Positions 1 through 14,538 of a stretch of DNA of 64,000 nt are shown here, one piece after another. Every line of letters starts with the position of its first letter. The first letter of the stretch is position 1. The position numbers were made by a program, and so were the translations under genes. Source of the DNA: Rhizobium sp. 32-5/1 (lineage in GTDB: Bacteria > Pseudomonadota > Alphaproteobacteria > Rhizobiales > Rhizobiaceae); NCBI RefSeq assembly GCF_029537235.1, contig NZ_CP120638.1, positions 372,001 to 436,000 of the forward strand, in the 5' to 3' direction. The notes below the pieces were generated by a model. That model was not told the origin of the DNA. It saw only the letters and a program-made list of their open reading frames with translations, and searched no databases.

Positions 1-48
1 CGAGGCGGGCAGGATACGTCGCCAAACGATGCCGAGCTTGTCCATCAT
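1..48 (-). CDS. 5' end of an unidentified gene, continues beyond the left edge
   Basis: Sixteen codons are present, reading MMDKLGIVWRRILPAS. The first ATG (46-48) overlaps the TGA of the caspase gene (45-47) in an ATGA arrangement, so the two are probably translationally coupled and belong to one operon. The short basic start followed by hydrophobic residues could be the beginning of a signal peptide or membrane anchor. Too little is visible to name a family; its position suggests a further component of the caspase/cytochrome operon. Confidence 0.6.
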   Translation of the reverse strand, partial: MMDKLGIVWRRILPAS

Positions 49-1668
49 GGCTTTTCCTGTGTGTAGAGAGGCTGGATCGCGATGCTGCTGTCTGTTGCAT
101 CGATCCGGGTCTGAAGAACCTTCAGCAAGGCAGCCGCATCAATTTCAGGATTGGCCAGCACCGCAGCGATCGCATCGACCGGCTCATTGGTTGCGATCAC
201 GACGAGATGGTCGGCACCGAACGGCTCGACAACCTCCAGATTCGGCAGCTTGAATTCATCCTCGCTTCCGGCCGACTGCACCTCGATGAGCTGAACTTCA
301 CCGGTATTGGCCAGATTGAAGATGATGCGGCTGGTATAGCCCGAGGCCGGGGCTTCGAATGTCAGCCTGTCACCGCTCCGATACAGTTCCTTGACCGGCG
401 TCAGCGAGACGGTTCCAGCCTTCTGGCTGGCCAGTGCCTTCAGGAAGTCGAGCAGGACGAACTTGTCGACCACGCCCTGGACCTTGGTGTCGGTGATGTT
501 CTGGCCGGCGATATCGCCGTTCGGCGTGTAGAAATTGCCGCTCGCCGCATCCCAGCGATAGGGTACGCCCGTGCCGCCGATATTGGTGATCTCGGCGCTC
601 GAGCCGGAAACCGAAAGAGCAAGCTTGTCCGTCCAGCCAAGATCGCGCGCCGATTTCAACGCATTTCCGGGATCGGTATTTGTTTTGGCGCCCATGTCGG
701 CGTCGGTCGCATCATTCACGGGCGCAGCGGCGTTGTCGATGACCACCTCGGCCTGTGTGCCCTGATCGTCGGGGACGGGCTGCACCACGCTGCGTGTTAG
801 GGAAACCACGACCTCGCTTTCGGAGCGCGGCACCTGCGGCGTAAAGTTGGGCACCTGCAATGCCTCGGACTGGTTCTTCACATTGGAAAACACATAGTCT
901 TCCAATTCGAGCCGTGAAATCTTGCCATCGCCGTCGCGGTCGCCGGCGCCTTCAAGCGCGCGCGCGAAACTCCAGCTCAAAGCCCCCTCGGTTCGCCACC
1001 GATGATCACTTCCGGCGTGGGCTGGCTTTCCAGGAAGCGGCAAGCACCGTCACGTCGCGGAAATCCCGTTCACGCAGCTTGGCGCCGGAAATGGCCTGCT
1101 CGGACGGCGCAGGCAATTTCACCGTCACGGCCGGCGCCAGCCGCGTCTTGCCGGAAAAGGACCGGCTCATGCCACCGGAATGGCAGCTGTCCGACACGAA
1201 GAGTACGCGTATGCCCTTGGCTTCCGCTTCGGCAAACCAGGCATTCATTTCGTTATCGACAATGATTTCGTGATCGGTTTCCGCAGCCCGCGCACGGTCG
1301 AAACCCGGCAATTGCAGGAATTCATCAAGCCCGTCTTCCTCATCGCCTGCGACCAGTTCCGGCATCTGCGATCCATGTCCGGCATAGGTGAAGATGATCG
1401 TATCGTCCTTGACAGCCTTTTCGACAAGCTCCGTCCACGCAGTGCGAATGGCATCCTTGCTGGCGGCTTCGTTGACGAATTTCGCGACATTGGTGATGCC
1501 CGCCTTATCAAGGGCGGCCGCGACGTCCTCCGCATCCTTCACCGCGCCGTCAAGATTGCTTTCGAAGGGGTACATATCGACCCCGACCACCAGCGCATAG
1601 GTCTCGGCTGCCGCATCCTGCAGGGGCAGCGCGCTCAGCGTGGCAGCCATGAGGATCCGGCGAAACAT
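45..1668 (-). CDS. Periplasmic caspase-like (peptidase C14) protein with EF-hand-like and DUF4384-like regions; two frameshifts
   Basis: Predicted secreted cysteine peptidase of the caspase/metacaspase fold. An N-terminal signal peptide (about residues 1-22) precedes the caspase domain, whose catalytic pair is visible as His98 in YAGHGSQ and Cys162 in SDSCHSG. An EF-hand-like loop DRDGDGKISRLE lies near residues 244-255, suggesting calcium binding. The C-terminal half contains a stretch resembling DUF4384 (YRSGDRLTFEAP). The start is ATG 1668 with a GGAG nine bases upstream, only three bases after the OmpA stop; TTG 1671 is an alternative. The frame is broken twice: near the GG at 1033-1034 and at the C run 983-987. 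Adding one base at each restores a continuous protein of about 541 residues. The gene is last but one in the visible operon. Substrate is unknown. Confidence 0.8.
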
Positions 1669-1671
1669 CAA

Positions 1672-2570
1672 TTATTTCTCCACGTCGATTTCGACGCGAC
1701 GGTTCAGCTGGTGGAGCGTCGCCTCGTCATAGGCGCTGGCATCATCCGGCTTGAAGGGCTCGTCTTCGCCCAGGCCGACACTCTTCCACTTGCCCTTGTA
1801 ACCAGCGGAAACAAGATAGTTTCCAAGCGCGTCGGCCCGCTCAAGCGACAGTATACGATTGGCCTCCGGCGATCCAACCGGATCGGTATGACCGATCAGC
1901 GTGATCGACGAGGGATTGACCGACTTCAGACATTCGCTCACGTCCTTGGCGGACTGCAGGCCCTCCGGAGTGAATTCCGCGGTCCCGAAGACATAGCGCA
2001 CCGGTGTCGATTTCTTCTTCAAGGACACGCCGCGATAATTTACCTTGCAGGGGCCGCGCATCGCCAGTTTGATCGGCTTGGCCGCCACAAGCCGCATTTC
2101 TCCGGCCAGATGATCAAGCCTGCGGATGTAATCAGCGTCCGGTGCCATCCAGTCTGGTGTCAGCGTTTCGTTTGACGCATCTTCCAGCGCCAGTTGGTAA
2201 TATTGGGCCGCGGATTCGTAGTTCTTTTTTCGCGATTGATGTCCCCCAGCGCATCGAGCACCTGCCAGGGCGCTGCCACCGTTTTCTGCAGCGTCTCCAG
2301 TTCACCATCAAACTCGACAAGCTTCTTGCCTTGGCCAACAGCCCCGACGATGCGGTTGAAAGACGTCAGCGCCGCGACGCGGTCAATGACCGCCATTTCA
2401 TCGGGTGAGCAACTGTCTGCAACATTCGCAGCCGCAATCGCCTGGGCTCCGGCCTCGTCGCCGGCATTCATCTTGTTGACGACATCGGTCAGCGCCGAGC
2501 AGGCGGCCGCTGCCGGAAAAGCGGAAAACGCCGCAAACATGGATGCAAAAACAACCGTTCTCAAAGCCAT
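1672..2570 (-). CDS. Secreted OmpA-family peptidoglycan-binding protein, one frameshift
   Basis: Predicted periplasmic protein with a signal peptide ending near AAAACS, a helical, cysteine-containing N-terminal half and a C-terminal OmpA-like domain. The OmpA domain is recognised by the pattern FTPEGLQSAKD, then IGHTDPVGS and the closing NRRVEIDVEK; such domains bind diaminopimelate in peptidoglycan. The frame breaks at the T run 2225-2230; one extra T gives about 299 residues and joins the N-terminal part (starting 2570) to the C-terminal part (ending 1672). It sits between the cytochrome c gene and the caspase gene, all in one direction. It might tether the module to the cell wall, which is inference. 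Confidence 0.8.
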
Positions 2571-2604
2571 GGCCTGTCCTCTCCCCTATTCCTCAGTGAT
2601 CAAC

Positions 2605-2640
2605 GAACAGGGGTCGGCCTTTTCCAGCCGACCCCTGTTC
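2605..2640 (-). other. Strong intercistronic hairpin between the cytochrome c and OmpA genes
   Basis: A perfect 14-bp inverted repeat (2605-2618 against 2627-2640) with an eight-base loop fills the gap between the cytochrome stop (2648) and the OmpA start (2570). No T run follows on the minus strand, so it does not look like a full rho-independent terminator. It may be an attenuator or an mRNA-processing or stabilising element. Confidence 0.6.
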
Positions 2641-2647
2641 CTGCATG

Positions 2648-5600
2648 TCACTTGATCTCGAACGTCACCATCTGGACGCCGCTTGCACCATTGTCGTTTT
2701 CCGCCTGCTTGGCCAGGTTAATCGCCAATCCACGCGTTGCCGGCTGGTGAGAGGCCTTCACCATTTCACGAGCCTTTTCGGCCGACAGCTTGGCATCCCC
2801 CAGCCCGCCAGCGCGGCAATAGGCGATCATCGTTTCGGCCGGCGCCGGCGTATCGAAGGTCAGATTGCCGCTGCCCGGTTGCGGGATCAGGCGTTTTTCA
2901 CCCGCCTGCAAGGTCGTATTGCCGATCATCGCATCGGGAATGACCTCGACATTGCCGGTCTCTTCCACATAGAGCACCTGAAGTTCACAGGCCTCGTTGG
3001 AACTCAACTCGAACGTCAGGTAGTCGCCCACCTTGGCCGTCGTCGAGTTGACGTAGAGTGCCAGCTCAAGCTTCTTGTAGTCCTTCGGCTTCTCCTGGCG
3101 GTAGGCCGGTGCAGCCTCGGCGAGGCTGGCCGGTTTCACATAGGCCTCCTCGTTCTTGACTGGCGCGACATAACCTTCTTTGTAGTCGATCTTGTCTGCC
3201 GGCTTGGCGTCAGCAGCCGCTTGATAGGCGGGATCAGCCTTGTTTTCAGCCTTGTTCTCGACCTTGCCCGCCTCGCTGCTGCCCTGGATTTCCACCTGCT
3301 CCGTCGCCGCGGCCTGATAGACATTGCTGACATCAAGCGGCTCAAGCTGCATCAGCGGGTAGAGCAGCAGCGGATATTGCTGCTCCAGTTCGATGCGCGG
3401 GATCGTGCCGCCGGCCTCCAGCGTCGTTACCCAGTCGATACCGAGGCGAAGTGCATCAATATCCGTAACCCGGCGGATCGCCTCGGAAAACTCATCCGGG
3501 GTCATGTCGAACTCGGATGCCAGCGCATCGAAATCGAGTTCGTCCTCGTACTTGTCAGCGAAGTAGGTGAAGAGTTCCGTGTTGCCGGGGGCAAGGATGC
3601 TCTGTTGCCCGCTATCCGGTGTCGGTTCCGTGACGCCGAGCTTTTCGAGCGCGGCGACAAAACGTTCGCGGTCCTTGTTATAGGCCTCGTCCAGTTCCTC
3701 CTGCGGAACATACATGGATAGCAGGACATCCTGCTGATCCTTGCTGAACAGCGTCGACGTCTGGATGTGCTCGCGCAGTTGATCGCGCTTCGAGAGAATG
3801 CCGTTTGCATGGCAGTCGAAGCAGGACCGGGCGTTGATGATCTCCACGCCCTTGCCGATCGGCCGTTCGCGGAACGAGACGATGGCGGTTGGCCCGATAT
3901 CGAGCTGTTTGCCCTCGGCGGTCGACAGGTAGTAGCCCTGCAGCCCGTTCGGCAGCGAGAAGATCATTTCACCACCGTCATGCTCGAACGAGGTCAGATG
4001 CTCGTCGAGTGGCTCCAGTTCCTTCGGGCCATGCGGAAAGCGCTTCAAGACCTGCTTGCCGACGTCACCGCCAAAGTCATAGGACTTCCAGTAGTAGCCG
4101 CCGAAGGGCATATCATGGCGTTCCAGCATGCGGTTGTGGTCCGACACGCCCGAAGATCCATCGGCAAAGCCCGCGCGGATCACCTTGCGGCGGCGGATAT
4201 TCTCATCCACATCGATCTTGAAGCGATGCTCCAGATCACGGATCTGCGTCGGCAGTTTCATCAGGTAATTGTAGATGTTCGGTCGTGCGCCAAAGCTCAT
4301 GAACCAGTCGATGCGCATGATAGGCAGGACCGTATTGGTTTCCTTGCTCAGCGCCCGCAGCGACGCATCGCTGCCCGGATCGACACCGTAGAAATACTGG
4401 CTGATCAGGAAGTTGTAGTCCTGGTCAGACCATTCCAGATCGCGTAGATCGACGCGCACCAGCAACCCGTTGGTGTCTTCCACTTCCTCGGGCAGAACCA
4501 GTTCTGGACCGTAGGAGAGCGAGTTCAGGAGTTTCTTGAATCCACCGGCGAGAATGTCCATGCGCTTCATGAAGGTATCGTCGTCTTCGCAACCCATCAT
4601 TCCATTATACTGGTTGCGATAGGAGAAGTAGCGCATATACGGACGGTCGAGCTCGTTGACATTGGAAATGTCTTTGAGTGCCGCTTCGATGAAGTCGTCA
4701 TAGGACAGCATCGGACGCACACGGTCCGGCTTGCTTGCCGCCGTTTCCGGCAGGTCCTTCTGCGTCAGCGAGTTGATCCAGTCCTCAAGACTCTTGACCT
4801 CCTCGGCTGTCGGACGCTTGCCAAGCGGCATGCGCCCGCTGGTAACAGAGGTGAAAAGCCGGGACTTGGACGCATCACCAGGTGTCACGAAGGTTGCGTC
4901 GGCAGCAATGGAGGCAAGATCGCCTGCCGGATAGCTGCCTTGCGATCCCTCGCCCGGTCCATGGCAATTGCGGCAATATTTTCCTATGAAGGCATCGGCC
5001 GCTCCGGCAAGCGCCGCATTGTCTCCCGAAAGGGCGCTTGCTGGCGTGCTTTCCTTGCAAACAGCCGTGGTCGATTGCTGCACCGGCTCCGGCGCCTTGA
5101 CCTCCCGGTCCGCCAGATAGGCATACATGGCCGTGCGATCATCTTCGGACAGCGCCGCGAGGCCCTTGGCGATCTCGCGCATGACCGGGTCGTTGAGCGG
5201 AGCGCCGGAGAGCTTCTTGCCTTCTTCGATCAGCCCGACGGTGAACACCTCCGGCGATGCCAGAGAGCCCATCTTCGCCTTGGTGATGTCAGGAGCCACT
5301 GCACCTGTCAGGCCCTTTTCGCCCTCAAAGGCCCGCTCCATGTCGAGACCGTAAGTCGTGGTGCGCGGCGTGTGGCAATCGCCGCAACCGCCGACATTCT
5401 CGACCAGATAGCGGCCGCGCTCCATCTGCGTCTCTTCGCGCGGCTGATAGGCATCGACATTGAAATGGCTACGCTTCCACAGCGTGATCGTCGTCTGCCG
5501 GCTGAAGGGGAACGCGATTTCGTGTTCCTTCGACACGGCATCCGCCTGCGGCAGCGTTTCGATGTAGGCCTTGATATCCAGGACGTCTTCCGGCTTCATG

Positions 5601-6022
5601 CCACCGTAGGACGTATAGGGCATAACCGGATAAAGATTGTTGCCCTCGCCATCAAGGCCGACCATGACAGCATTAAGGAAGCGGGCATTGCCCCAGCCGC
5701 CGATACCGTTGGAATGGGGCGAAATGTTCGGCGCGTAGAACTTGCCGATCGCCGTATCCATGGCCATGCCCCCGGAGAGCAGCGTCGTATCCGAGCCGGA
5801 TCCGTGGCAGGCGCCGCAACCGGCGGCACCGAACAAATACTTGCCGTTATCCACATTCGCCTTGTAGGTCGAATAGGCGTCATCAGCGAAAGCGTCCCTC
5901 GCCGAGGCCGTGGACGGACACTGGATCATCGCAACGGCGACCAATGCCAGTATCCACGCCGGCCGCATCAGACGGGACCGCGTATTAAAGAGGCTTTCAG
6001 GCAGTTTCCCGAACATGCTCAT
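2648..6022 (-). CDS. Large four-haem periplasmic cytochrome c with C-terminal DUF4384-like domain
   Basis: A 1124-residue exported protein. A hydrophobic signal sequence (about 20-42) is followed by three CXXCH haem sites at about 69-73 (CGACH), 213-217 (CGDCH) and 350-354 (CRNCH) in two or three cytochrome c domains. A long central region (about 435-740) follows, carrying the motifs LPNGLQGYY and the fourth site CFDCH (about 734-738). A Lys/Ala/Glu-rich linker (about 905-980) leads to a DUF4384-like beta domain (GDYLTFELSSNEACELQVLYV). I chose ATG 6022 because AAGGAGA lies just upstream and the signal peptide then begins normally. The upstream neighbour is a ferric-reductase-like flavoprotein that could feed electrons to it; downstream are OmpA and caspase genes. 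The electron acceptor is unknown. The central region resembles uncharacterised bacterial multi-haem proteins. Confidence 0.85.
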   Translation of the reverse strand: MSMFGKLPESLFNTRSRLMRPAWILALVAVAMIQCPSTASARDAFADDAYSTYKANVDNGKYLFGAAGCGACHGSGSDTTLLSGGMAMDTAIGKFYAPNISPHSNGIGGWGNARFLNAVMVGLDGEGNNLYPVMPYTSYGGMKPEDVLDIKAYIETLPQADAVSKEHEIAFPFSRQTTITLWKRSHFNVDAYQPREETQMERGRYLVENVGGCGDCHTPRTTTYGLDMERAFEGEKGLTGAVAPDITKAKMGSLASPEVFTVGLIEEGKKLSGAPLNDPVMREIAKGLAALSEDDRTAMYAYLADREVKAPEPVQQSTTAVCKESTPASALSGDNAALAGAADAFIGKYCRNCHGPGEGSQGSYPAGDLASIAADATFVTPGDASKSRLFTSVTSGRMPLGKRPTAEEVKSLEDWINSLTQKDLPETAASKPDRVRPMLSYDDFIEAALKDISNVNELDRPYMRYFSYRNQYNGMMGCEDDDTFMKRMDILAGGFKKLLNSLSYGPELVLPEEVEDTNGLLVRVDLRDLEWSDQDYNFLISQYFYGVDPGSDASLRALSKETNTVLPIMRIDWFMSFGARPNIYNYLMKLPTQIRDLEHRFKIDVDENIRRRKVIRAGFADGSSGVSDHNRMLERHDMPFGGYYWKSYDFGGDVGKQVLKRFPHGPKELEPLDEHLTSFEHDGGEMIFSLPNGLQGYYLSTAEGKQLDIGPTAIVSFRERPIGKGVEIINARSCFDCHANGILSKRDQLREHIQTSTLFSKDQQDVLLSMYVPQEELDEAYNKDRERFVAALEKLGVTEPTPDSGQQSILAPGNTELFTYFADKYEDELDFDALASEFDMTPDEFSEAIRRVTDIDALRLGIDWVTTLEAGGTIPRIELEQQYPLLLYPLMQLEPLDVSNVYQAAATEQVEIQGSSEAGKVENKAENKADPAYQAAADAKPADKIDYKEGYVAPVKNEEAYVKPASLAEAAPAYRQEKPKDYKKLELALYVNSTTAKVGDYLTFELSSNEACELQVLYVEETGNVEVIPDAMIGNTTLQAGEKRLIPQPGSGNLTFDTPAPAETMIAYCRAGGLGDAKLSAEKAREMVKASHQPATRGLAINLAKQAENDNGASGVQMVTFEIK

Positions 6023-6083
6023 GGCTTGTTCTCCTTGCTTTCTGAAATGAACAAAACGTCTCTGCGTCTGTCGGAACTGAATA

Positions 6084-7357
6084 TTATCGGAACTGAAACT
6101 GTTCGAACTCGACACGCCGCGGCGTCTTGCCCAGCGCTTTCAGTCCTTTTTCAATAGCTGCCCTCAAAGGCGGCGGGCCACAGAACCAGAGGTCTGCCTC
6201 GCCGGGGTCGAACGCACTGGCCGCCACTATTTTTTCGGCATCGAGCCGACCATCCTTGGCGGAATCATGCAACACGAAACTGAAATTCTGCAGCTTGCCG
6301 GCCTGCGTCTCGAAAGTCTCCAGCCCGATCGCCTCGCTGCGGTCGCGCACGCAATAGACCAGATGAATGTCCTGGCCTTCGTCGCCCTTGAGGCGGCTCG
6401 CCATGGCGAGAAACGGCGTGATGCCGATACCGCCCGCCAGCCAGATCTGCTTCTTGCCGCCACGTCGATGATTGAAATGTCCGTAGCCGCCCTCGAGCGT
6501 CACCGAATCGCCAACGGCAATGCCCTCGCGCAGTGCCTTTGTATAGTCACCGAGCGCCTTGATCGCGAACCTTACGACGCCGTCGTCATCGATCCCCGCG
6601 ATCGTGAAAGGGTGCGGTTCCCGCAGGCCTGACTTGTTGACGCGGAAAAAACCGAACTGGCCGGGTTTCGCCTTGAGCGGGCGGCCGGTCGGTCGCGCCG
6701 ATATGATCGTCGCCCCCTCATGCCGGTTGACGTCGAAGACCTCGTAACTGCGGGTCCGCAGCCACGGCAAGAGCTGGGTATAAATATAGCTGCCGATACC
6801 GATCAGCGCAAAGATATTGAGATAGCTGGCCAAAAGAGCCGTGCCGTCATAGGGCCGCTTGATGAACATCTGGTGGAATGCAACCAGGATGAAAAGAACA
6901 CCGATGAAGCGGTGGGTGATGCGCCAGATGTGATATGGAATTTCGATCTTCGTGCGCGGAATGATCTTGACGAGGCTGAAAATCAGAAGAACGACGAAAC
7001 CATAAAAAGCGTATTCGCCGAACATGGCGGCGAGCTGATTTAAGCCGCTGGTCAGTGACAACCCCTTGAAGTCCGGCGTAATGAAATAATGCACCAGGAT
7101 TAGTACAAGAACGGCGATACCGATCTTGCGGTGCACCTGGTATATTCTGTCGAGCCCGCCGAACAGGCGCTCGATGAAGGGGGCCGCGTCGCCAAGAACT
7201 GGGCGATCCCCATACCGACAAAAGCCATGGACGATGCGACAAGCGAAAACGTCGTTCCTGCATTGGTGTGACTGACGGCGGGTATGGCAAGCAAGCCCGC
7301 AAAACCAATCAATGTCCAGACGATGTATGCACCCGCAGTCAATTTGCGCCCCCACAA
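6084..7357 (-). CDS. Ferric-reductase-like transmembrane NAD(P)H oxidoreductase (FRE/NOX type), one frameshift
   Basis: Predicted inner-membrane flavohaem protein moving electrons from NAD(P)H to membrane haem. The N-terminal half has several membrane helices of the ferric-reductase-like type, with paired histidines such as RKIGIAVLVLILVHYF and ITHRFIGVLF that suit haem ligation. The C-terminal half is a ferredoxin-reductase module: HPFTIAGI (FAD), GGIGITPFLAM (nucleotide) and WFCGPPPLR. The frame is broken at the G run 7179-7183; one extra base gives about 424 residues. The start used is TTG 7357, the only start in the restored frame before an upstream TGA, so it is uncertain. The gene leads the operon, 61 bases before the cytochrome c gene. 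Confidence 0.78.
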
Positions 7358-8075
7358 ATATCACCGAAAGTCGACAGTTCCTCTTGGATCAAGACTGGCA
7401 AGGCCCATAAGGTTCGTCAACTGCTATTGTAGCTGTTACGGATTGCTCAGCCGCTTTATTCGCCCCGGCGAAATTTTATGCTTCAGAAAACCCTGGTAAA
7501 AATACGAGACAATAATTTTTCAGAATATCAAAGATTCTGCATTGCGACAGCTGCCACAAGATTACATCCAAATAGTTTTCAGCCGCCCTTCAGCGACGAC
7601 AATGCAGACTAACTGCGTCAGCGCATTGGTCAAGAGCGGAAATATCTGCCAACAGGCATAAACTGTGTGAAATCAAGGATACAAGTTGGTTTCGTCTAAT
7701 AAAAAGCAATCCCCCGGCTCCTGAGGAACGACGTACTTCCGTTCGTTTTGGGTATTTATAGTCAACGCTTGCAGCGAACAGCAACCCTGCGTAGCACATG
7801 CTTTTGCAGGCCCTCCTCAGCAGCGGTTTGCTCTCCGCGACCATCTTCGCTTTTTTGCATGGCCTAATCAAGAAAGCCACGAAGGATCGTGCGATCGACG
7901 GTGGTGTTGATCAAAATGCAAGACAACGCGCCATTTCGACCCTCTCGCGCTTGCCTTTAGCGTCAATTTTTGTCGTTAGTGCCCGGGACAGTCAACATGG
8001 CCGTGACCAATCATATCTTTAGCGGTTTGATTCTGCTGCTGTAGATATGCGATTTATCACGAAGGACGATCTTTC
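7358..8075. other. 718-base intergenic region without a convincing gene
   Basis: This stretch separates the minus-strand redox/caspase operon from the plus-strand GntR gene and should hold both promoters. It is more A+T rich than its surroundings. I see no Fnr/FixK box (TTGAT-N4-ATCAA). A seven-base inverted repeat CATATCT / AGATATG (8012-8018 and 8043-8049, 24 bases apart) lies just before the GntR gene and could be part of its operator. A 96-codon open frame on the minus strand (7590-7880) has no signal I trust. Confidence 0.5.
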
Positions 8076-8696
8076 ATGACGAACCCATCTTCCCAGGCGC
8101 ATCTAGCCTATCTGGCGCTGGAAAGCTTGATCGTTACGCTGAAGCTGGAGCCGGGATCGCTGGTGACGGAAAAACAGCTGATTGATCTGGCCGGCCACGG
8201 GCGGACACCGGTGCGAGAAGCGATCCAGAAACTGGCCTGGCAAGGCCTGATCACGGTGCGGGCCCGGGTTGGCCTGCAAATTTCCAAAATCAAGGCCGAC
8301 GACCATCGCCATGTCATGGAGACGCGCAGCATTTTGGAGCCGCTCGCTGCAGCCCTTGTCGCCGAGCATGCGAGCCCGGATCAACGCGCCGACATGATCG
8401 AATGCGCCCAGAAGATGACCGCATGTTCGATCAATGCTGACATGGAGGGCTTCCTCTCGGCGGACAAGGCGTTTGACGAGATCATGGAGGCCGCATGCCC
8501 CAACGCCTTCCTGACCGCCGCACTTGCATCTTTGCAGACCCACGCCCGCCGCCTCTGGTTCAGGGCCGCATCGACGGACCATATGGACCGGTCGGTTGAC
8601 CTGCACGTGAAGGTGATCCGTGCCATTCACCAGGGCAACGCGGACGCAGCCTCCGCGGCCATGGTGCAACTGATGGGTTATCTCGCGGGCCGCTGA
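8076..8696 (+). CDS. GntR-family transcriptional regulator, FCD subfamily
   Basis: A 206-residue DNA-binding regulator. The N-terminal winged helix-turn-helix (about 10-75) shows the family pattern VTEKQLIDLAG, GRTPVREAIQKL and GLITVRARVGLQI. The C-terminal all-helical FCD effector domain (about 80-200) carries RSILEPLAAAL and the closing LHVKVIRAIHQGNADAA, with acidic and histidine residues typical of metal-assisted ligand binding. Members usually respond to small organic acids. Its target is not evident: it is divergent from the redox/caspase operon and convergent with fpr. The start ATG 8076 has AAGGA upstream. Confidence 0.85.
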   Translation: MTNPSSQAHLAYLALESLIVTLKLEPGSLVTEKQLIDLAGHGRTPVREAIQKLAWQGLITVRARVGLQISKIKADDHRHVMETRSILEPLAAALVAEHASPDQRADMIECAQKMTACSINADMEGFLSADKAFDEIMEAACPNAFLTAALASLQTHARRLWFRAASTDHMDRSVDLHVKVIRAIHQGNADAASAAMVQLMGYLAGR

Positions 8697-8725
8697 ACGA
8701 CGGGCAGAGTGCCGGCAATGCAAAA

Positions 8726-8751
8726 GGGCGGTCTGCCATCGCAAACCGCCC
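8726..8751 (-). terminator. Terminator shared by fpr and the GntR gene
   Basis: GGGCGGT (8726-8732) pairs with ACCGCCC (8745-8751), with further pairing inside the loop. On the minus strand, downstream of fpr, the stem is followed by TTTTGC, a rho-independent pattern. It also lies just after the plus-strand GntR stop and may serve both genes. Confidence 0.75.
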
Positions 8752-8776
8752 CTTCCCTATAGCTGTATTCTAACGA

Positions 8777-9592
8777 TCAGCCGACGAAGGCGCGCTCGAT
8801 GACGAACTCGCCCGGCTTGTTGTTCGCACCTTCTGTCAGGCCGGCTGCCTCGAGAATTTCCTTTGTTTCCTTCAGCATCTCTGTCGAGCCGCAGATCATG
8901 GCGCGGTCGATCGCCGGATCGAAGGCTGGCAGGCCAAGATCGGTGAAGAACTTGCCGTCACGCATCAGGTTGGTGATACGGCCTTTGAACGGATAGTCCT
9001 CGCGCGTCACCGTTGCGTAATGGCGCAGCTTGTCGCCGACAAGCTCGGCCAGGAATTCATGGTTGCGGATTTCCTCGATCAGGTCGAAGCCGTATTTCAG
9101 TTCCGCCACGTCGCGCGTCGTGTGCGTCAGGATGACTTCCTCGAACTTCTCGTAGGTTTCCGGATCGCGGATCAAGCTTGCAAAGGGCGCTATGCCGGTG
9201 CCAGTCGAGAACATGTAGAGGCGCTTTCCAGGGGTCAGCGCGTCGAGCACCAGAGTGCCGGTCGGCTTCTTGCGCATCAGCACCTGATCGCCCGGCTTGA
9301 TACCCTGCAGGTGCGAGGTCAGCGGACCGTCCTGTACCTTGATCGAGAAGAATTCGAGCTCATCGTCCCAGGCCGGGCTTGCGATCGAATAGGCACGGTA
9401 GATGGGCTTGCCATCCACCATCAGTCCGATCATCGCGAATTCGCCGGAGCGGAACCGGAATTCGGTCGGACGCGTCATGCGGAAGCTGAACAACCGGTCC
9501 GTATAATGCGTCACCTTCGTCACCGTTTCGGCAAAGACGCCGGCGGGGACAGCTGCGGGAACAAATTCTTCGACCTTGGCAGGAGCATTCAT
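8777..9592 (-). CDS. fpr: Ferredoxin--NADP(+) reductase
   Basis: A 271-residue cytoplasmic flavoenzyme exchanging electrons between NADP(H) and ferredoxin or flavodoxin. FAD binding is shown by RAYSIAS (about 85-91), NADP binding by STGTGIAPFASLIRD (about 130-144), and the end by GEFVIERAFVG, the usual C-terminus of the bacterial FprA class. Length and start are normal for the family. It is transcribed alone, 141 bases downstream of the cys operon. That neighbour encodes a sulfite reductase haemoprotein with no flavoprotein subunit, so fpr plus a ferredoxin is a plausible electron source; that is inference. Confidence 0.93.
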   Translation of the reverse strand: MNAPAKVEEFVPAAVPAGVFAETVTKVTHYTDRLFSFRMTRPTEFRFRSGEFAMIGLMVDGKPIYRAYSIASPAWDDELEFFSIKVQDGPLTSHLQGIKPGDQVLMRKKPTGTLVLDALTPGKRLYMFSTGTGIAPFASLIRDPETYEKFEEVILTHTTRDVAELKYGFDLIEEIRNHEFLAELVGDKLRHYATVTREDYPFKGRITNLMRDGKFFTDLGLPAFDPAIDRAMICGSTEMLKETKEILEAAGLTEGANNKPGEFVIERAFVG

Positions 9593-9733
9593 CTTGGTCT
9601 TAGTCCTGTAATGGTGAGTAGAGCGATCATCTTAGGCGGATAGAGCACTGGAACGGCGAAAGAAAGGAAATCTGTTCCAATTATACGCCTCTTTGCATGA
9701 AATGCCTTGCTTCAGACTGTCGCGGGCCAATTT

Positions 9734-10234
9734 TCAGGAAACCCGACGCCAGCTGTAGGATCTGGCGTCCGTCGAAGGCCGCGCCGTCGGCTGATAGTGG
9801 TTGGCGATGCCCGGCAGCCGGCCTTCGGAAAGGCGCCGGATTGCAGTATCATTGGTCACGGCAAAGCTGTCGATGCCGCAACGGAGCATCAGCGGCACCT
9901 GGTCGATCAGCACGTCGCCGACAGCCCGGATTTCATTGGCGAAGCCCAGCCGCTGACGCAGCAGCGAGGCGTGACTGAACGCCCGACCATCGTTGAAGGC
10001 AGGGAACGCGACCGCAACGATATCGAGGCGAGACAGATAGGGCTCGAGCCGTTTGACGTCGTCGGCCGGCTTGATCAGCACGCCGAGACCGACATCATTG
10101 CTGGTCTCCGCCCGTGCGATCAATGCATCGATCTCCAGAAGCGGCTTCTGCTCGCCGCTTGCCGTGACGTCGTCGGTTTCGACGATCCACGGATCGTTCT
10201 CTACAAAACCGGTTTCTTTCCAGATCTTCGTCAT
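9734..10234 (-). CDS. DUF934 family protein linked to sulfite reductase
   Basis: A 166-residue cytoplasmic protein of the DUF934 family, which is habitually encoded next to sulfite or nitrite reductase genes in proteobacteria. Recognisable features are the central GLGVLIKPADDVKRLEPYL stretch, VALMLRCG-like segment VPLMLRCGIDSF, and the C-terminal YQP..DAR sequence. The start is ATG 10234 with AGGGA upstream, ten bases after the cysI stop, so it is the last gene of the cysG-DUF2849-cysI-DUF934 operon. Its biochemical role is not established; a function in sulfite reductase assembly or electron delivery is a guess from context. Confidence 0.85.
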   Translation of the reverse strand: MTKIWKETGFVENDPWIVETDDVTASGEQKPLLEIDALIARAETSNDVGLGVLIKPADDVKRLEPYLSRLDIVAVAFPAFNDGRAFSHASLLRQRLGFANEIRAVGDVLIDQVPLMLRCGIDSFAVTNDTAIRRLSEGRLPGIANHYQPTARPSTDARSYSWRRVS

Positions 10235-10244
10235 ATCTTTTCCC

Positions 10245-11915
10245 TTATGCCGCTGCTGCCGTCGAGCCATAGAGCGCATCCTTGAACGGCTGCGGTCCGA
10301 CACGGCGATAGGCTTCGAGGAAAATTTCCGACGGATCGTTGCGCAGGCCAAGATAGGTCTCAACGATGGTCTCGATCGCGTCAGTCACCTTCTCCGGCTC
10401 GAAGCCGCGGCCGATGATTTCACCGATTGAGGTATTCTCGTCACCAGAGCCGCCAAGCGTGATCTGGTAAAGTTCCGCGCCCTTCTTCTCGACACCCAGA
10501 AGGCCGATATGGCCGACATGGTGGTGACCGCAGGCATTGATGCAGCCGGAAATCTTGATCTTCAGCTCGCCGATTTCGGCCTGTCGCGCCGGATCGCCGA
10601 AGCGGGTGGAGATTTCCTGCGACAGCGGGATCGAGCGTGCATTGGCGAGCGCGCAATAGTCCAGCCCCGGACAGGCGATGATATCCGTGATCAGGCCGGC
10701 ATTGGCGGTCGCAAGCCCCGAAGACACGAGGCCGCGATAGACGGCTTCGAGATCGGCCAGCGCCACATGCGGCAGGATCAGGTTCTGCTCGTGGCTGACA
10801 CGGATTTCGTCGAAGGCATATTCTTCGGCGATATCGGCAACAAGATCCATCTGCGCGTCGCTGGCGTCGCCCGGGATGCCGCCGATCGGCTTCAGGGAGA
10901 TTGTCACCATGCCATAGTCGGGATGGCTGTGCGGCTGAACATTCTGGTCGATCCAGCGGGCGAACCCCTCGTCCGCCTTCTTCCACCGGGCGAGATTGGC
11001 CCAACCTTCCGGACGCTCGCTGAGCGCCGGCAGCGCGAAATAGGACGAGATCGCCTGGATATCGGTGTCGGGCAGTTTCAGTTCGGTGTTCTTGAGGTCC
11101 GCGAATTCGACATCCACCTGGCGCGCCAGTTCCTCAGCACCGGTTTCGTGCACGAGGATCTTGATGCGCGCCTTGTACTTGTTGTCGCGGCGTCCATGCA
11201 GATTGTAAACGCGCATGATCGCTGTGGTGTAGGACAACAAGTCCTCTTCCGGCAGGAAGTCGCGGATCTTCTTGGCGATCATCGGCGTGCGGCCCTGCCC
11301 ACCACCGACATAGACGGCAAAACCGATCTCGCCCTTGTCGTTCTTTTTCAGATGCAGGCCGATGTCGTGCACCTGAATGGCCGCGCGGTCGCGCTCGGCG
11401 CCGGTGACGGCGATCTTGAACTTGCGCGGCAAGAAGGAAAACTCTGGATGCACGGATGACCACTGGCGCAGGATTTCCGCGTAGGGACGCGGGTCGGCGA
11501 CCTCGTCGGCGGCAGCACCGGCAAAATGATCGGCCGTGACATTGCGGATGCAGTTGCCGGAGGTCTGGATGGCGTGCATCTCGACGGAGGCGAGATCGGC
11601 CAGAATGTCAGGCGTATCGGAGAGTTTCGGCCAGTTGTACTGGATGTTCTGGCGCGTGGTGAAGTGGCCATAGCCGCGATCGTACTTGCGCGCGATATGG
11701 GCCAGCATGCGCATCTGCTTGGAATTCAGCGTGCCATAGGGAATGGCGACACGCAGCATATAGGCGTGAAGCTGCAGATAGACGCCATTCATCAGCCGGA
11801 GCGGCTTGAAGGCATCCTCGGCAAGCTCTCCCGAAAGGCGGCGGGTCACCTGATCGCGGAACTGCTCGACGCGGTCATGGACAAAGGCGTGGTCGAATTC
11901 ATCGTAACGATACAT
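10245..11915 (-). CDS. cysI: Sulfite (nitrite/sulfite) reductase haemoprotein subunit
   Basis: A 556-residue siroheme and [4Fe-4S] enzyme reducing sulfite to sulfide for cysteine synthesis. The cofactor ligands are seen as CPGLDYC (about 424-430) and GCINACGHH (about 462-470), the C-x5-C...C-x3-C pattern. Two ferredoxin-like half-domains are present, including GYGHFTTRQNIQYNW early in the chain. The gene follows DUF2849 by 14 bases and precedes DUF934 by 10, in an operon with siroheme synthase. The neighbours argue for sulfite rather than nitrite as substrate. No NADPH-flavoprotein subunit (cysJ) is nearby. Confidence 0.92.
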   Translation of the reverse strand: MYRYDEFDHAFVHDRVEQFRDQVTRRLSGELAEDAFKPLRLMNGVYLQLHAYMLRVAIPYGTLNSKQMRMLAHIARKYDRGYGHFTTRQNIQYNWPKLSDTPDILADLASVEMHAIQTSGNCIRNVTADHFAGAAADEVADPRPYAEILRQWSSVHPEFSFLPRKFKIAVTGAERDRAAIQVHDIGLHLKKNDKGEIGFAVYVGGGQGRTPMIAKKIRDFLPEEDLLSYTTAIMRVYNLHGRRDNKYKARIKILVHETGAEELARQVDVEFADLKNTELKLPDTDIQAISSYFALPALSERPEGWANLARWKKADEGFARWIDQNVQPHSHPDYGMVTISLKPIGGIPGDASDAQMDLVADIAEEYAFDEIRVSHEQNLILPHVALADLEAVYRGLVSSGLATANAGLITDIIACPGLDYCALANARSIPLSQEISTRFGDPARQAEIGELKIKISGCINACGHHHVGHIGLLGVEKKGAELYQITLGGSGDENTSIGEIIGRGFEPEKVTDAIETIVETYLGLRNDPSEIFLEAYRRVGPQPFKDALYGSTAAAA

Positions 11916-11929
11916 CGGTCTTCAATTCC

Positions 11930-12244
11930 TCAGGCAGCATGTACGGGGCCGGTAAGGCCCTTGTATCCGGGGGCATATTCGATCGTCGGGCCTTCGGCAC
12001 GAACGCGTTCGCGCAGGCGCAGCGGTCGCAGAACGCCATTTACTTCTTCGATGTCGATGACGTTGACGTCAACCACCTTGTTGTCGGCAAAGGCGGTTTT
12101 GCCGGTCGCTTCCAGCGCGGCAACCGCCTCGGCATGGCGCGCGACGAAGGCGTCCTGCAGCGATTCCACCCAATTGCCGGCGGCATCCAGCCAGACGGAA
12201 ATGCCATCGGAAAGGCGGTTGGCTGTCAGCACTTTGTCGACCAT
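11930..12244 (-). CDS. DUF2849 family protein in the sulfite reduction operon
   Basis: A 104-residue protein of the DUF2849 family, typical of rhizobia and relatives, where it sits between cysG and cysI. It opens with VLTANRLSDGISVWLDAAGNW and ends with an Arg-rich region and GPTIEYAPGYKG. No catalytic motif, signal peptide or membrane segment is visible. It starts at ATG 12244, nine bases after the cysG stop. The conserved neighbourhood suggests an accessory role in sulfite reduction, but no function is known to me. Confidence 0.85.
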   Translation of the reverse strand: MVDKVLTANRLSDGISVWLDAAGNWVESLQDAFVARHAEAVAALEATGKTAFADNKVVDVNVIDIEEVNGVLRPLRLRERVRAEGPTIEYAPGYKGLTGPVHAA

Positions 12245-12253
12245 GTCAGTCCC

Positions 12254-13707
12254 TCAATTCGTCTTTTGTGTTTCGCGTCGGACCGCAGCCGGGGCAAGGA
12301 CCGCCCTGCCCGCCTTTGCCACCAGCGGTTCGGAATGTTCGAAATTGGCGCCTGCGACCGCGTCGCCGATGATCACCATGACCGGTCCGTTCAACTCGTC
12401 GCGATGCTCAAGATCGGGCAGATCGCGCAGCGTGCCATGCAGCAGGCGACGATCGGCCCGGCTGGCATTCTCGATCACCGCAACCGTCGTTTCGGCCGGC
12501 AATCCGGCCTCCATCAGCCGCCCGGCAACGGACGCGGCCACTGTGCGGCCCATATAGACGGCAATCGTCGCGCCCGATATCGCCAGCCTTGCCCAATCCG
12601 GCAAAACATCGCCCGCCAGATCATGGCCGGTGGTGAAGATCAGCGATGAGGCCACACCGCGCAGCGTCAGTGGCAGTTCGAAGTCAGCCGCAGCCGCAAA
12701 GGCGGATGTGATGCCGGGAACGATCTCGTAGGTAATCCCGGCCTCGCGCAAAGCGGCCATTTCTTCGCCTGCGCGGCCATAGACCAGCGGATCGCCGGAC
12801 TTCAACCGTACGACGCGCTTGCCTTCCGAGGCAAGACCCACCAGCAGTTGATTGATCTCTTCCTGTGACTTCGAATGGCAACCCTTGCGCTTGCCGACTG
12901 ACAGCCGCTCCGCGTCACGGCGGCCCATGTCGACGATTGCCTGGGGTACCAGCGCATCATAGACCAGCACATCGGCCTCCATCATCACGCGCTGGGCGCG
13001 CAGCGTCAGAAGGTCTTCGGCGCCAGGCCCTGCTCCAACCAGCCAGACATGGCCGGGAACCTTGTCCATGGCCTTCAGCAGCTTCGTCGCCTCGCGACGG
13101 GCGAGCGACACATTGCCGAGCGCGACTTGATCGGCCACCGCGCCGGAGAAGAAGCGGCGCCAGAACACGCGCCGGGCAACGCCACGCGGGACAAGGCGGT
13201 CTACAGCATGACGATAGGTCTGCGCGAGCGTTGCCAGAACGCCCAGCGACGGAGACAAGATCTGGTCGACCTGCGCCCTGATCATCTGGGCCAGCACCGG
13301 ACCCGCCCCTTCCGTTCCGATGGCAACGGCGACCGGCGCGCGATTAACCAGCGCCGGGGTCAGGAAATCGCAGAACTCGGGTTGATCGACTGCGTTGGCC
13401 GGGATTTTTGCGCGCGAGCAGCGGCGACAATCAATTGATCCTGCTCAGCATCACCGGTAGCGGCGAAAACGAGCACGGCGCCTTCCACCTGTTCCGGAGA
13501 AAAGGCAGCCTTCACGGTCTTGATCTCGTTTAATGTGAGATAGGCTGCAAGGTCGGCTTCCGGCTCATCGGCATAAAGGACGATATCGGCCTGCGTATTG
13601 CGCAGCAACCGCACTTTTGCAAAAGCCTCATCGCCATTGCCGAACACCGCCACGCATTTCTGCGCAACGCGGAAGAAGGCCGGAAAGACGGTCAGTTGCT
13701 CGGTCAT
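12254..13707 (-). CDS. cysG: Siroheme synthase (CysG), one frameshift
   Basis: Multifunctional enzyme making siroheme from uroporphyrinogen III. The N-terminal NAD-binding dehydrogenase/ferrochelatase part shows the dinucleotide motif VFGNGDEAFAKVRLL. The C-terminal uroporphyrinogen methyltransferase part shows VWLVGAGPGAEDLLTL, RLKSGDPLVYGRAGEE, VPGITSAFAAAA and the late VYMGR. The reading frame changes at the T run 13405-13409; one extra T gives a single protein of about 484 residues, normal for the family. It heads the cys operon and supplies the cofactor of the CysI product. The SUMT half alone would not replace the dehydrogenase step if the break were real. Confidence 0.9.
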
Positions 13708-13950
13708 GATCGAGGAGACGGATCCTGTTACAGATAATCCAGAATATCCTCCTTATAGCCAAGAAATTGAAGAAACAGAAATGCCAATGGCTTTGCCGAC
13801 ACGACTTGTTTTGCTCGACATGCCGGGAATTTGAGCAAATCTCTCCCGTTGCGGCGCATCGAAGCCTTTGCTCTCGATGGCGAAACAGGATTGCGCATCA
13901 CCGGCGTTCCCCGTTAAATGCCCTTGTCTCATCCCTGGAGCGAAATCATC

Positions 13951-14538
13951 ATGACACAATCGGAACTCGCGGAACGTCTGCTGACGGTCATCGAGCACGA
14001 CATATTGCCGCTCACCGAACGCGGCGTGGCCGCAGGCAACAAGGTGTTCGGCGCTGCCATCCTGCGCAAGTCCGATCTCTCGCTGGTAGTTGCGGAAACG
14101 AACAACGAGACCGAAAATCCGCTCTGGCACGGCGAAGTGCACACGTTGAAGCGCTTCTACGAGCAGGCGGAAAAGCCTGATACAAAGGATCTGATTTTCC
14201 TGTCGACACACGAGCCCTGCTCCATGTGTCTTTCGGCGATCACCTGGGCGGGGTTCGACAATTTCTACTATTTCTTCAGCCACGAGGATTCGCGCGACGC
14301 CTTTGCCATTCCGCACGACCTGAAGATTTTGAAAGAGGTCTTCAAGCTGGAACCCGGCAGCTATGCCAAAAACAACGCCTTCTGGCGGTCCGCAGCTATT
14401 TCCGATCTGGTGGCCACGTCAGAGCCGCAGAAGCAAGCCGCCCTGCGCCAGCAGGATGCGCGTATCCGCGCCCGCTATCAGAACCTGTCCGATGCCTATC
14501 AGTCCGGCAAGGACGACAACGCCATTCCGCTGAATTGA
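13951..14538 (+). CDS. Nucleoside/cytidine deaminase superfamily protein
   Basis: A 195-residue zinc-dependent deaminase fold protein. The zinc and catalytic residues are visible as HGEVH (His and Glu, about 69-73) and PCSMC (about 90-94), the HxE...PCxxC signature. The Trp/Tyr-rich segment after the second motif (FDNFYYFFSHEDSRDAF) and the longer C-terminal tail separate it from TadA and point to a nucleoside or guanine-like deaminase, but the substrate cannot be fixed. The start ATG 13951 has GGAG upstream. mazG follows after five bases, so the two may form a nucleotide-housekeeping operon. Confidence 0.85.
   Translation: MTQSELAERLLTVIEHDILPLTERGVAAGNKVFGAAILRKSDLSLVVAETNNETENPLWHGEVHTLKRFYEQAEKPDTKDLIFLSTHEPCSMCLSAITWAGFDNFYYFFSHEDSRDAFAIPHDLKILKEVFKLEPGSYAKNNAFWRSAAISDLVATSEPQKQAALRQQDARIRARYQNLSDAYQSGKDDNAIPLN

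What the first reader, a model, noticed from the sequence alone, without database searches (positions are those of the whole stretch)
45..7357. Operon joining a secreted caspase-like protease to a four-haem cytochrome c and a flavohaem reductase
Four genes in one direction encode a ferric-reductase-like NAD(P)H flavohaem protein, a 1124-residue exported cytochrome c with four CXXCH sites, a peptidoglycan-binding OmpA protein and a secreted caspase with His98/Cys162. The start of a fifth gene overlaps the caspase stop. The layout suggests electron flow across the membrane to a periplasmic multihaem protein that is linked to a wall-tethered protease, for example as a redox-gated proteolytic switch. 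I know of no described system with this composition; its resemblance to the cytochrome c-caspase pairing of animal apoptosis is suggestive only.
Basis: partly seen in the sequence, partly recalled or inferred. Interest (0 to 1): 0.78.

Follow-up and report, generated by a model that had tools for sequence, protein, structure and literature searches.

The report
Bacterial cytochrome-caspase redox gene cluster
A conserved bacterial gene cluster joins an NADPH-oxidase-like membrane protein and a four-haem cytochrome to secreted caspase-type proteases, which suggests that some bacteria wire electron flow to protein cutting outside the cell membrane.

Summary
The gene set is real, and larger than reported: the fifth gene, which starts inside the window and runs out of it, is a second secreted caspase. 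Three of the reported ORFs are frame-broken in this assembly; intact copies exist in relatives. The order NOX-like flavohaem protein, four-haem cytochrome, OmpA, caspase, caspase holds in 47 of 52 named loci, and one congener lacks all five. In other alphaproteobacteria the genes are reshuffled, yet 67 of 71 four-haem loci still have a caspase; of the other four, two are one contig cut at its end and two are pieces of G026, a real exception as far as seen. In nine genomes 22 of 75 caspase genes lie within 10 kb of the cytochrome; 0.4 are expected. A two-haem branch in another family has no adjacent NOX gene and carries a secreted trypsin-like protease instead, 10 of 10. The cytochrome holds a conserved haem domain without Pfam or PDB match. 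I conclude that this is a genuine extracytoplasmic electron-transfer/protease unit, not described in the papers I searched. Electron flow gating the protease is the best mechanism but is untested (about 0.4). The apoptosis parallel is analogy.

The parts
6087..7364 (-). NOX-like flavohaem protein (ferric-reductase transmembrane domain + FAD and NAD(P)H domains); frame break near 7181, conserved start region near 7341
   Evidence: Pfam Ferric_reduct, FAD_binding_8, NAD_binding_1; phmmer to SpNOX-type structures E 9e-41 to 2e-40; four haem His conserved in 46 of 46 loci with an aligned gene
2648..6022 (-). Exported four-haem cytochrome c, 1124 aa
   Evidence: Pfam Cytochrom_C, Cytochrome_CBB3, DUF4384; four CXXCH in 47 of 47 five-gene loci
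5804..5818 (-). Haem site 1, CGACH
   Evidence: sequence; C-x-A-C-H in 47 of 47
5372..5386 (-). Haem site 2, CGDCH
   Evidence: sequence; CG[DE]CH in 47 of 47
4961..4975 (-). Haem site 3, CRNCH
   Evidence: sequence; identical in 47 of 47
3323..4735 (-). Middle domain of the cytochrome (about residues 430-900) carrying haem 4; no known family found
   Evidence: no Pfam/NCBIfam match in this region; AlphaFold2 model mean pLDDT 77.8, pTM 0.82; no PDB match at E<=0.001
3809..3823 (-). Haem site 4, CFDCH
   Evidence: sequence; C[FV]DCH in 47 of 47
2819..3034 (-). DUF4384 domain of the cytochrome
   Evidence: PF14326, 28.2 bits against a cut-off of 27, so only just above it
2605..2640 (-). Strong hairpin in the cytochrome-OmpA spacer, without a U run
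   Evidence: 15-bp stem, -36.5 kcal/mol for the spacer; a hairpin of 8 or more pairs in 32 of 32 relatives' spacers examined, of 47 loci; 4 of 6 consensus pairs with two-sided changes
1672..2570 (-). OmpA-domain (peptidoglycan-binding type) exported protein; frame break near 2226
   Evidence: PF00691; open in G013
45..1671 (-). Secreted caspase 1 (Peptidase_C14), EF-hand-like motif, own C-terminal domain; frame breaks near 1033 and 986
   Evidence: PF00656; Foldseek best matches are metacaspases and Geobacter GSU0716; His/Cys dyad in 47 of 47
1375..1377 (-). Catalytic His98 codon of caspase 1
1183..1185 (-). Catalytic Cys162 codon of caspase 1
1..48 (-). Start of secreted caspase 2 (519 aa, Peptidase_C14 + DUF4384), overlapping the stop of caspase 1; the rest lies outside the window (G000:C1:370489-372048)

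Best explanation
A NAD(P)H-to-haem-to-protease unit of the cell envelope. Shown: the five genes form a conserved unit; the first protein is a NOX homologue; four haem sites and the catalytic dyad of caspase 1 are invariant in the 47 five-gene loci. Judged by eye: export signals on the cytochrome, OmpA and caspases. Inferred: the NOX-like protein passes electrons from cytosolic NAD(P)H through two b-haems to the periplasmic cytochrome (haems 1-2 as entry, haem 3 as relay, haem 4 in the new domain as the working site). The redox state of that domain gates the caspases, which are held near it by OmpA on the peptidoglycan and perhaps by shared DUF4384 domains. With a cysteine protease the electrons may also keep the active-site thiol reduced. 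Where the protease is serine-type, the adjacent NOX gene is missing, and with it the two entry haems of the cytochrome (one locus keeps two haems on a separate gene).
For: All five absent together in G012, flanks aapP and fpr present, and that genome has no C14 gene at all. Caspases in 67 of 71 four-haem loci in several gene orders. 22 of 75 C14 genes in nine genomes within 10 kb of the cytochrome, 0.4 expected (these genomes were picked after caspases had been seen there); in G1206 both C14 genes of the genome. Protease swap: 10 of 10 two-haem loci with flank have Trypsin_2, no NOX gene in the stretch and no caspase. Junctions within -4 to +5 nt for OmpA-caspase 1 in 43 of 46 and caspase 1-caspase 2 in 39 of 46. 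dN/dS 0.04-0.15 in all five genes, seven pairs. NOX homology and haem His spacing 14/13 as in SpNOX. SpNOX reduces cytochrome c directly, under argon too but less efficiently (PMC5676040 passages). DUF4384 above its cut-off in both cytochrome (just) and caspase 2.
Against: No experiment shows electron transfer, protease activity or gating. G026 has NOX gene, cytochrome and OmpA but no caspase on the flanks seen: OmpA is 274 nt from the PBP1C-like gene where its two genus-mates G542 and G612 have a caspase between, and its six C14 genes lie on other contigs. The NOX/caspase against no-NOX/trypsin contrast is one change on the tree, separated by long branches, so it could be inherited accident. 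L120 has the trypsin partner yet keeps two extra haems on a separate gene, and four of the ten trypsin genomes have NOX homologues elsewhere. In three Ensifer-group loci caspase 2 has lost a catalytic residue and in one its catalytic domain, so its proteolysis is dispensable there. DUF4384 was not detected in caspase 1, and profile comparisons of the three C-termini are weak.
Confidence: 0.4

Rival explanations
1. Envelope quality control, repair or destroy: the electron chain feeds a haem enzyme (the middle domain) that repairs or detoxifies oxidised envelope material, as MsrQ feeds MsrP, and the proteases clear what cannot be saved. The two halves share a stress but do not regulate each other.
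For: NOX-type domains feed periplasmic repair in MsrPQ (PMC5676040 passages). The middle domain has many invariant residues, including His, Met and Asp/Glu, which suits an enzyme. Swapping caspase for trypsin suits clearance. G026 keeps NOX gene and cytochrome without an adjacent caspase.
Against: A protease stands near the cytochrome in 77 of the 82 loci examined (67 caspase, 10 trypsin), and in some there are three to five caspases, which is more than a shared stress would require; no repair-enzyme family matches the middle domain.
Confidence: 0.3
2. The NOX-like protein is a true superoxide producer; the cytochrome oxidises or senses superoxide/peroxide and the caspases respond to it.
For: SpNOX makes superoxide (PMC5676040 passages); the NOX homology spans transmembrane, FAD and NAD(P)H domains.
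Against: A dedicated multihaem acceptor gene directly downstream makes O2 an unlikely main acceptor; the two-haem/trypsin form lacks the adjacent NOX gene.
Confidence: 0.12
3. A defence or programmed-death system: infection or damage triggers the caspases and kills or arrests the cell.
For: PADLOC's generic caspase model matches both caspases; trypsin/caspase alternation is a theme of prokaryotic conflict systems (PMC7159879 passages).
Against: Shared chromosomal flanks across several genera, constant order and low dN/dS; no defence model for the NOX-like protein or the cytochrome; proteins exported by inspection, whereas the conflict systems in the passages of PMC7159879 that I saw mostly rest on NTPases.
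Confidence: 0.08
4. The window copy is decaying: three of its genes carry frame breaks, so in this strain the system is non-functional.
For: Four frame breaks in three genes.
Against: The assembly is 87% complete in 3 contigs; the 78%-complete assembly G014 (L040, the contig of L058) shows split flavohaem and OmpA genes too; the longest gene and caspase 2 are open; close relatives are open.
Confidence: 0.1

Closest known systems
Prokaryotic NADPH oxidases (SpNOX of Streptococcus pneumoniae)
   Same: Ferric-reductase domain fused to FAD/NAD(P)H domain, four haem His with 14/13 spacing; phmmer E 9e-41 to 2e-40
   Different: Here next to a dedicated multihaem cytochrome and proteases; catalysis untested
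MsrPQ periplasmic methionine sulfoxide repair
   Same: Ferric-reductase-type membrane haem protein feeding a periplasmic acceptor (PMC5676040 passages)
   Different: Acceptor is a four-haem cytochrome with a new domain, not a molybdopterin enzyme; the donor carries its own flavin domain; proteases attached
Bacterial metacaspase/orthocaspase operons
   Same: C14 genes in operons; OmpA in 14 of the metacaspase operons of a 2012 survey (PMC3501461 passages)
   Different: That main text has no occurrence of 'cytochrome'; the NOX/cytochrome part is additional
NTP-dependent conflict systems with alternating trypsin and caspase peptidases
   Same: Mutually exclusive trypsin-like or caspase-like peptidase beside a constant core (PMC7159879 passages)
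   Different: Here the core is a haem protein and an OmpA protein, exported; no NTPase among the five genes
Animal apoptosome (cytochrome c, Apaf-1, caspase-9)
   Same: A cytochrome c and a caspase in one pathway
   Different: No Apaf-1-like protein among the five genes, different cytochrome, different compartment; analogy only

Membership tests
NOX (NADPH oxidase) family | Ferric-reductase domain fused with FAD and NAD(P)H domains in one chain | tested here: met
NOX (NADPH oxidase) family | Two pairs of haem-ligating His on two helices, 13-14 residues apart | tested here: met
   His97/111/170/183 in L045 numbering, conserved in 46 of 46 loci with an aligned gene; SpNOX H69/H83 and H129/H142
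NOX (NADPH oxidase) family | NAD(P)H-dependent superoxide production | not testable with these tools
   needs biochemistry
Metacaspase/orthocaspase (C14) | Caspase domain above the Pfam cut-off | tested here: met
   caspase 1 and caspase 2
Metacaspase/orthocaspase (C14) | Catalytic His-Cys dyad | tested here: met
   caspase 1 in 47 of 47; caspase 2 in 43 of 47, lost in L065, L069, L070 and domain missing in L088
Metacaspase/orthocaspase (C14) | Caspase-type fold | tested here: met
   the nine Foldseek hits at E<=0.001 for the caspase 1 model are metacaspases and Geobacter GSU0716; the model is poor overall (pLDDT 59)
Metacaspase/orthocaspase (C14) | Calcium-dependent cleavage after basic residues | not testable with these tools
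   EF-hand-like motif only, below the Pfam cut-off
MsrPQ | Acceptor protein is a molybdopterin MsrP beside the membrane haem protein | tested here: not met
   the neighbour is a cytochrome
NTP-dependent conflict systems | STAND/MoxR-vWA/GTPase core component | tested here: not met
   none among the five genes by Pfam; genes further out were not scanned for it
Known anti-phage defence systems (PADLOC) | System-specific models for the non-protease components | tested here: not met
   none for the flavohaem protein or the cytochrome; a weak ZorB/MotB-type hit for OmpA; only a generic caspase model for the caspases

The most novel reading that the evidence does not exclude
A bacterial redox proteostat in which electrons from cytosolic NAD(P)H pass through a NOX homologue and a dedicated four-haem cytochrome c to switch caspases on or off outside the inner membrane: a cytochrome-gated caspase pathway that does not depend on Apaf-1-like proteins, with a new haem domain as the switch and the protease as an exchangeable output.
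Probability: 0.3. Interest if true: 0.93.

Novelty: categorically new. Interest (0 to 1): 0.8.

Why it matters
The physiological electron acceptor of bacterial NOX proteins and the role of bacterial caspase homologues are both open questions. PMC5676040 itself suggests acceptors other than O2 (passage), and the 2012 survey left 70 of 217 metacaspase operons without a function (passage). This cluster gives a genetically tight candidate answer to both, in bacteria of which several are named strains, with one congener (G012) that lacks the whole cluster and every other C14 gene as a natural comparison. If gating holds, it would be a direct chemical link between cellular reducing power and proteolysis outside the membrane, and a new haem domain would be assigned a role.

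Tried and rejected
Chance neighbourhood: rejected. Strain-specific oddity: rejected (24 of 25 congeners have the cytochrome). Known fold for the middle domain: Foldseek against PDB gave no match with E<=0.001; the model is moderate and the other libraries were not used, so a known fold is not excluded. Shared C-terminal domain in all three proteins: DUF4384 confirmed only in cytochrome and caspase 2; hhalign gives only weak similarity, E 0.014-0.037. General-stress (EcfG-type) promoter: the pattern GGAAC-N16-18-[CG]GTT, recalled by me, was found upstream of 0 of 46 flavohaem genes. Consensus promoters and terminators in window 1-14000: 6 and 12 found, 4.5 and 12.5 expected. Terminator between cytochrome and OmpA: the hairpin has no U run, so more likely processing or stability. 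Plasmid carriage: 1 of 72,556 plasmid records, Neorhizobium petrolearium, with caspase-OmpA-flavohaem-cytochrome order. Defence: only generic caspase hits in PADLOC. 'Not in print' rests on searches of an open-access library only; two of them returned no paper, and the one paper of one search names a single caspase gene in a Bradyrhizobium table (PMC6710368, one passage); the others were judged from listings and abstract starts except for the papers read by passage.

Dropped or not examined: of the 24 hits, G504, G586, G647, G508, G589, G650 and G673 were not fetched. The named scan used two peptide words only, so distant relatives are missed there. Of 82 loci the tree used 52 rows, near-duplicates and partial copies being left out by hand. 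L093/L101, L094/L109, L090/L107 and L076/L106 are the same contigs or identical sequences counted twice (the 67 are 64 without them). The local caspase, trypsin and flavohaem HMMs were built partly from these loci; Pfam confirmed the trypsins in all ten and C14 near the cytochrome in eight genomes besides the window's own. The counts given to one search were read by me.


Full report
What is there. The window is bases 372001-436000 of a 4.27-Mb contig of a Pararhizobium-like genome (nearest named relative Pararhizobium antarcticum). On the minus strand from 7364 to the window's left edge lie five genes. (1) A ferric-reductase/FAD/NAD(P)H protein. (2) A 1124-residue exported cytochrome with CXXCH at residues 69, 213, 350 and 734 and a C-terminal DUF4384. 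(3) An OmpA-domain protein. (4) A secreted caspase-domain protein with His98 and Cys162. (5) Starting at position 48 and running out of the window, a second secreted caspase with GHG/DACHSG and DUF4384. Export signals were judged by eye from the N-termini. The relative G013 (L024; same contig as L045) has all five open, the genome is 3 contigs at 87% completeness, and another low-completeness assembly (G014, 78%) shows split genes 1 and 3; I therefore take most or all of the breaks as assembly errors.

Conservation. In 61 genomes (the window's own and 60 relatives) the whole cytochrome was found in 24 of 25 other congeners (all but G012) and in G028, G036 and, split over contigs, G026. A scan of one genome for each of 84,980 species with the cytochrome's middle domain gave 52 named loci: 47 have the five genes in order (Pararhizobium, Rhizobium, Ensifer/Sinorhizobium, Shinella, Metarhizobium), with L054 cut by its contig end and L088 lacking the catalytic part of caspase 2. 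Of eight cluster loci checked for flanks, three have both aapP and fpr (L033, L037, L062), as the window does, four have one of the two sides (L026, L061, L076, L080) and one neither (L064); L026/L061 are one contig. G012 has aapP and fpr without any of the five genes (gene names of the flanks are by recall) and has no C14 gene in its whole genome. Gene junctions are tight: 43 of 46 OmpA-caspase 1 and 39 of 46 caspase 1-caspase 2 junctions lie within -4 to +5 nt; most of the exceptions look like over-long ORF calls. dN/dS is 0.04-0.15 for all five genes in seven pairs. Frequency of the middle domain: 24 of 247 genomes of the family, 2 of 385 of the class, 3 of 398 of the phylum, each including the window's own, and 15 of 248 of the family of G214; the hits seen lie in one class.

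Linkage beyond synteny. Outside the core genera the gene order changes but the partners mostly stay. Seen are: caspase-OmpA-NOX-cytochrome (L129); A2M-PBP1C-caspase-OmpA-NOX-cytochrome (L103; A2M, PBP1C named by recall); caspase-NOX-cytochrome-OmpA-caspase (L099); NOX-cytochrome-OmpA-caspase x3 (L115, L116); caspases on both sides (L091, L092, L094). Over 82 loci examined, 71 are four-haem or contig-truncated copies of that form, and 67 have a caspase. Of the four without, L090 and L107 are one contig that ends just upstream, where its truncated neighbour resembles the start of L094's caspase gene; L036 and L039 are two pieces of G026, where OmpA stands 274 nt from the PBP1C-like gene, no caspase lies in the 7.7 kb after the cytochrome, and the six C14 genes of the genome lie on other contigs: a real exception as far as the contigs show, since its genus-mates G542 and G612 have a caspase at that place. 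Eleven loci are two-haem: ten carry a Trypsin_2 protein near the cytochrome (nine on the same strand, L120 on the other), with no caspase and no NOX gene in the stretch, and L104 is a 5.7-kb contig with neither. Pfam confirms Trypsin_2 in all ten. Whole-genome counts show that this is not caspase abundance: in nine genomes 22 of 75 C14 genes lie within 10 kb of the cytochrome against 0.40 expected, including both C14 genes of G1206; these genomes were chosen after caspases had been seen, so the number describes strength, not frequency. The ten trypsin genomes hold 18 C14 genes, none adjacent. The tree of the middle domain puts the ten trypsin loci in one clade (100/99) with one inferred change of protease, so the swap counts as one event; several long branches make deep placements unsure. 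The tool gives that family only a code (f49).

The proteins. The first is a NOX homologue: the best PDB matches, over residues 59-444 of 445, are a set of entries of which 8qq7 is SpNOX (E 9e-41 to 2e-40; 8qq7 confirmed in PMC11031084 by passage; that 8qt6 and 8qta are SpNOX too is recalled), and His97/111/170/183 are conserved in 46 of 46 loci with an aligned gene, with SpNOX's spacing. The cytochrome's four haem sites are conserved in 47 of 47. Its middle domain (about residues 430-900, with haem 4) has no Pfam or NCBIfam match; the AlphaFold2 model (pLDDT 77.8, pTM 0.82) has no PDB match at E<=0.001; invariant His, Met and acidic residues suggest a catalytic or sensing haem site. Caspase 1 keeps His/Cys in 47 of 47, caspase 2 in 43 of 47. 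Foldseek's nine matches at E<=0.001 for caspase 1 are metacaspases and Geobacter GSU0716, although the model is weak (pLDDT 59). DUF4384 is above its cut-off in cytochrome (27.4 and 28.2 bits against 27) and caspase 2 only.

Mechanism. PMC5676040 (passages) reports that SpNOX reduces cytochrome c directly, also under argon though less efficiently, and proposes non-oxygen acceptors; here a NOX homologue is followed by its candidate acceptor. The comparison of forms suggests a constant core (haems 3-4, DUF4384, OmpA, an exported protease) and an add-on (NOX-like protein plus haems 1-2) that goes with the cysteine protease. The simplest reading is that the add-on imports electrons and the core converts haem redox state into protease control; with a thiol protease the electrons could also protect the active site. 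This is inference from one evolutionary contrast. The main rival is repair-and-clear quality control in the manner of MsrPQ. Results against the reading: G026 lacks the adjacent caspase; L120 keeps two extra haems on a separate gene without an adjacent NOX gene; four of the ten trypsin genomes (G1023, G1103, G1230, G1235) have NOX homologues elsewhere; and caspase 2 can lose its dyad in the Ensifer group.

Novelty. The 2012 metacaspase survey (PMC3501461, passages) notes OmpA in 14 metacaspase operons and a protease/inhibitor operon in four Rhizobium strains, and its main text has no 'cytochrome'. PMC7159879 (passages) describes trypsin/caspase alternation in NTP-dependent conflict systems. 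PMC8195603 was searched for four words only: no 'heme', 'OmpA' or 'NOX', one 'cytochrome' in the reference list. PMC11564096 and the other listed papers were seen as listings and abstract starts only. My searches found no description of this cluster. The component families are known except for the middle domain; the system as a whole fits no known kind that I could name, hence 'categorically new', with its mechanism open.

Noticed in passing
window 50299-51825 (+): Another caspase-domain protein with Sel1 repeats (508 aa), not part of this cluster by position; the genome has 11 C14 matches in all.
   Followed up: no
window 2605-2640 and spacers of L044-L095: A strong hairpin between cytochrome and OmpA genes; 32 of 32 spacers long enough to examine (of 47 loci) fold a hairpin of 8 or more pairs, with differing sequence and no U run in the window copy, so perhaps an mRNA processing or stability element.
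   Followed up: partly
L065, L069, L070, L088 (Ensifer group): Caspase 2 has lost a catalytic residue or its catalytic domain while caspase 1 stays intact.
   Followed up: partly
L033 (G015): Caspase 2 is interrupted by about 2.5 kb of inserted DNA.
   Followed up: no
L102, L103, L036: A PBP1C-like gene, in L103 preceded by bacterial alpha-2-macroglobulin, stands upstream of the cluster in another genus.
   Followed up: partly
L127:3886-6096 (+): A second trypsin-like protein, fused to WD40 repeats, stands beside the two-haem cytochrome cluster.
   Followed up: no
L098 (G214): All 7 C14 caspase genes of this genome lie within about 13 kb of the cytochrome.
   Followed up: partly
G012 (L130): The one congener without the cluster has no C14 gene at all in a 99%-complete genome.
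   Followed up: partly
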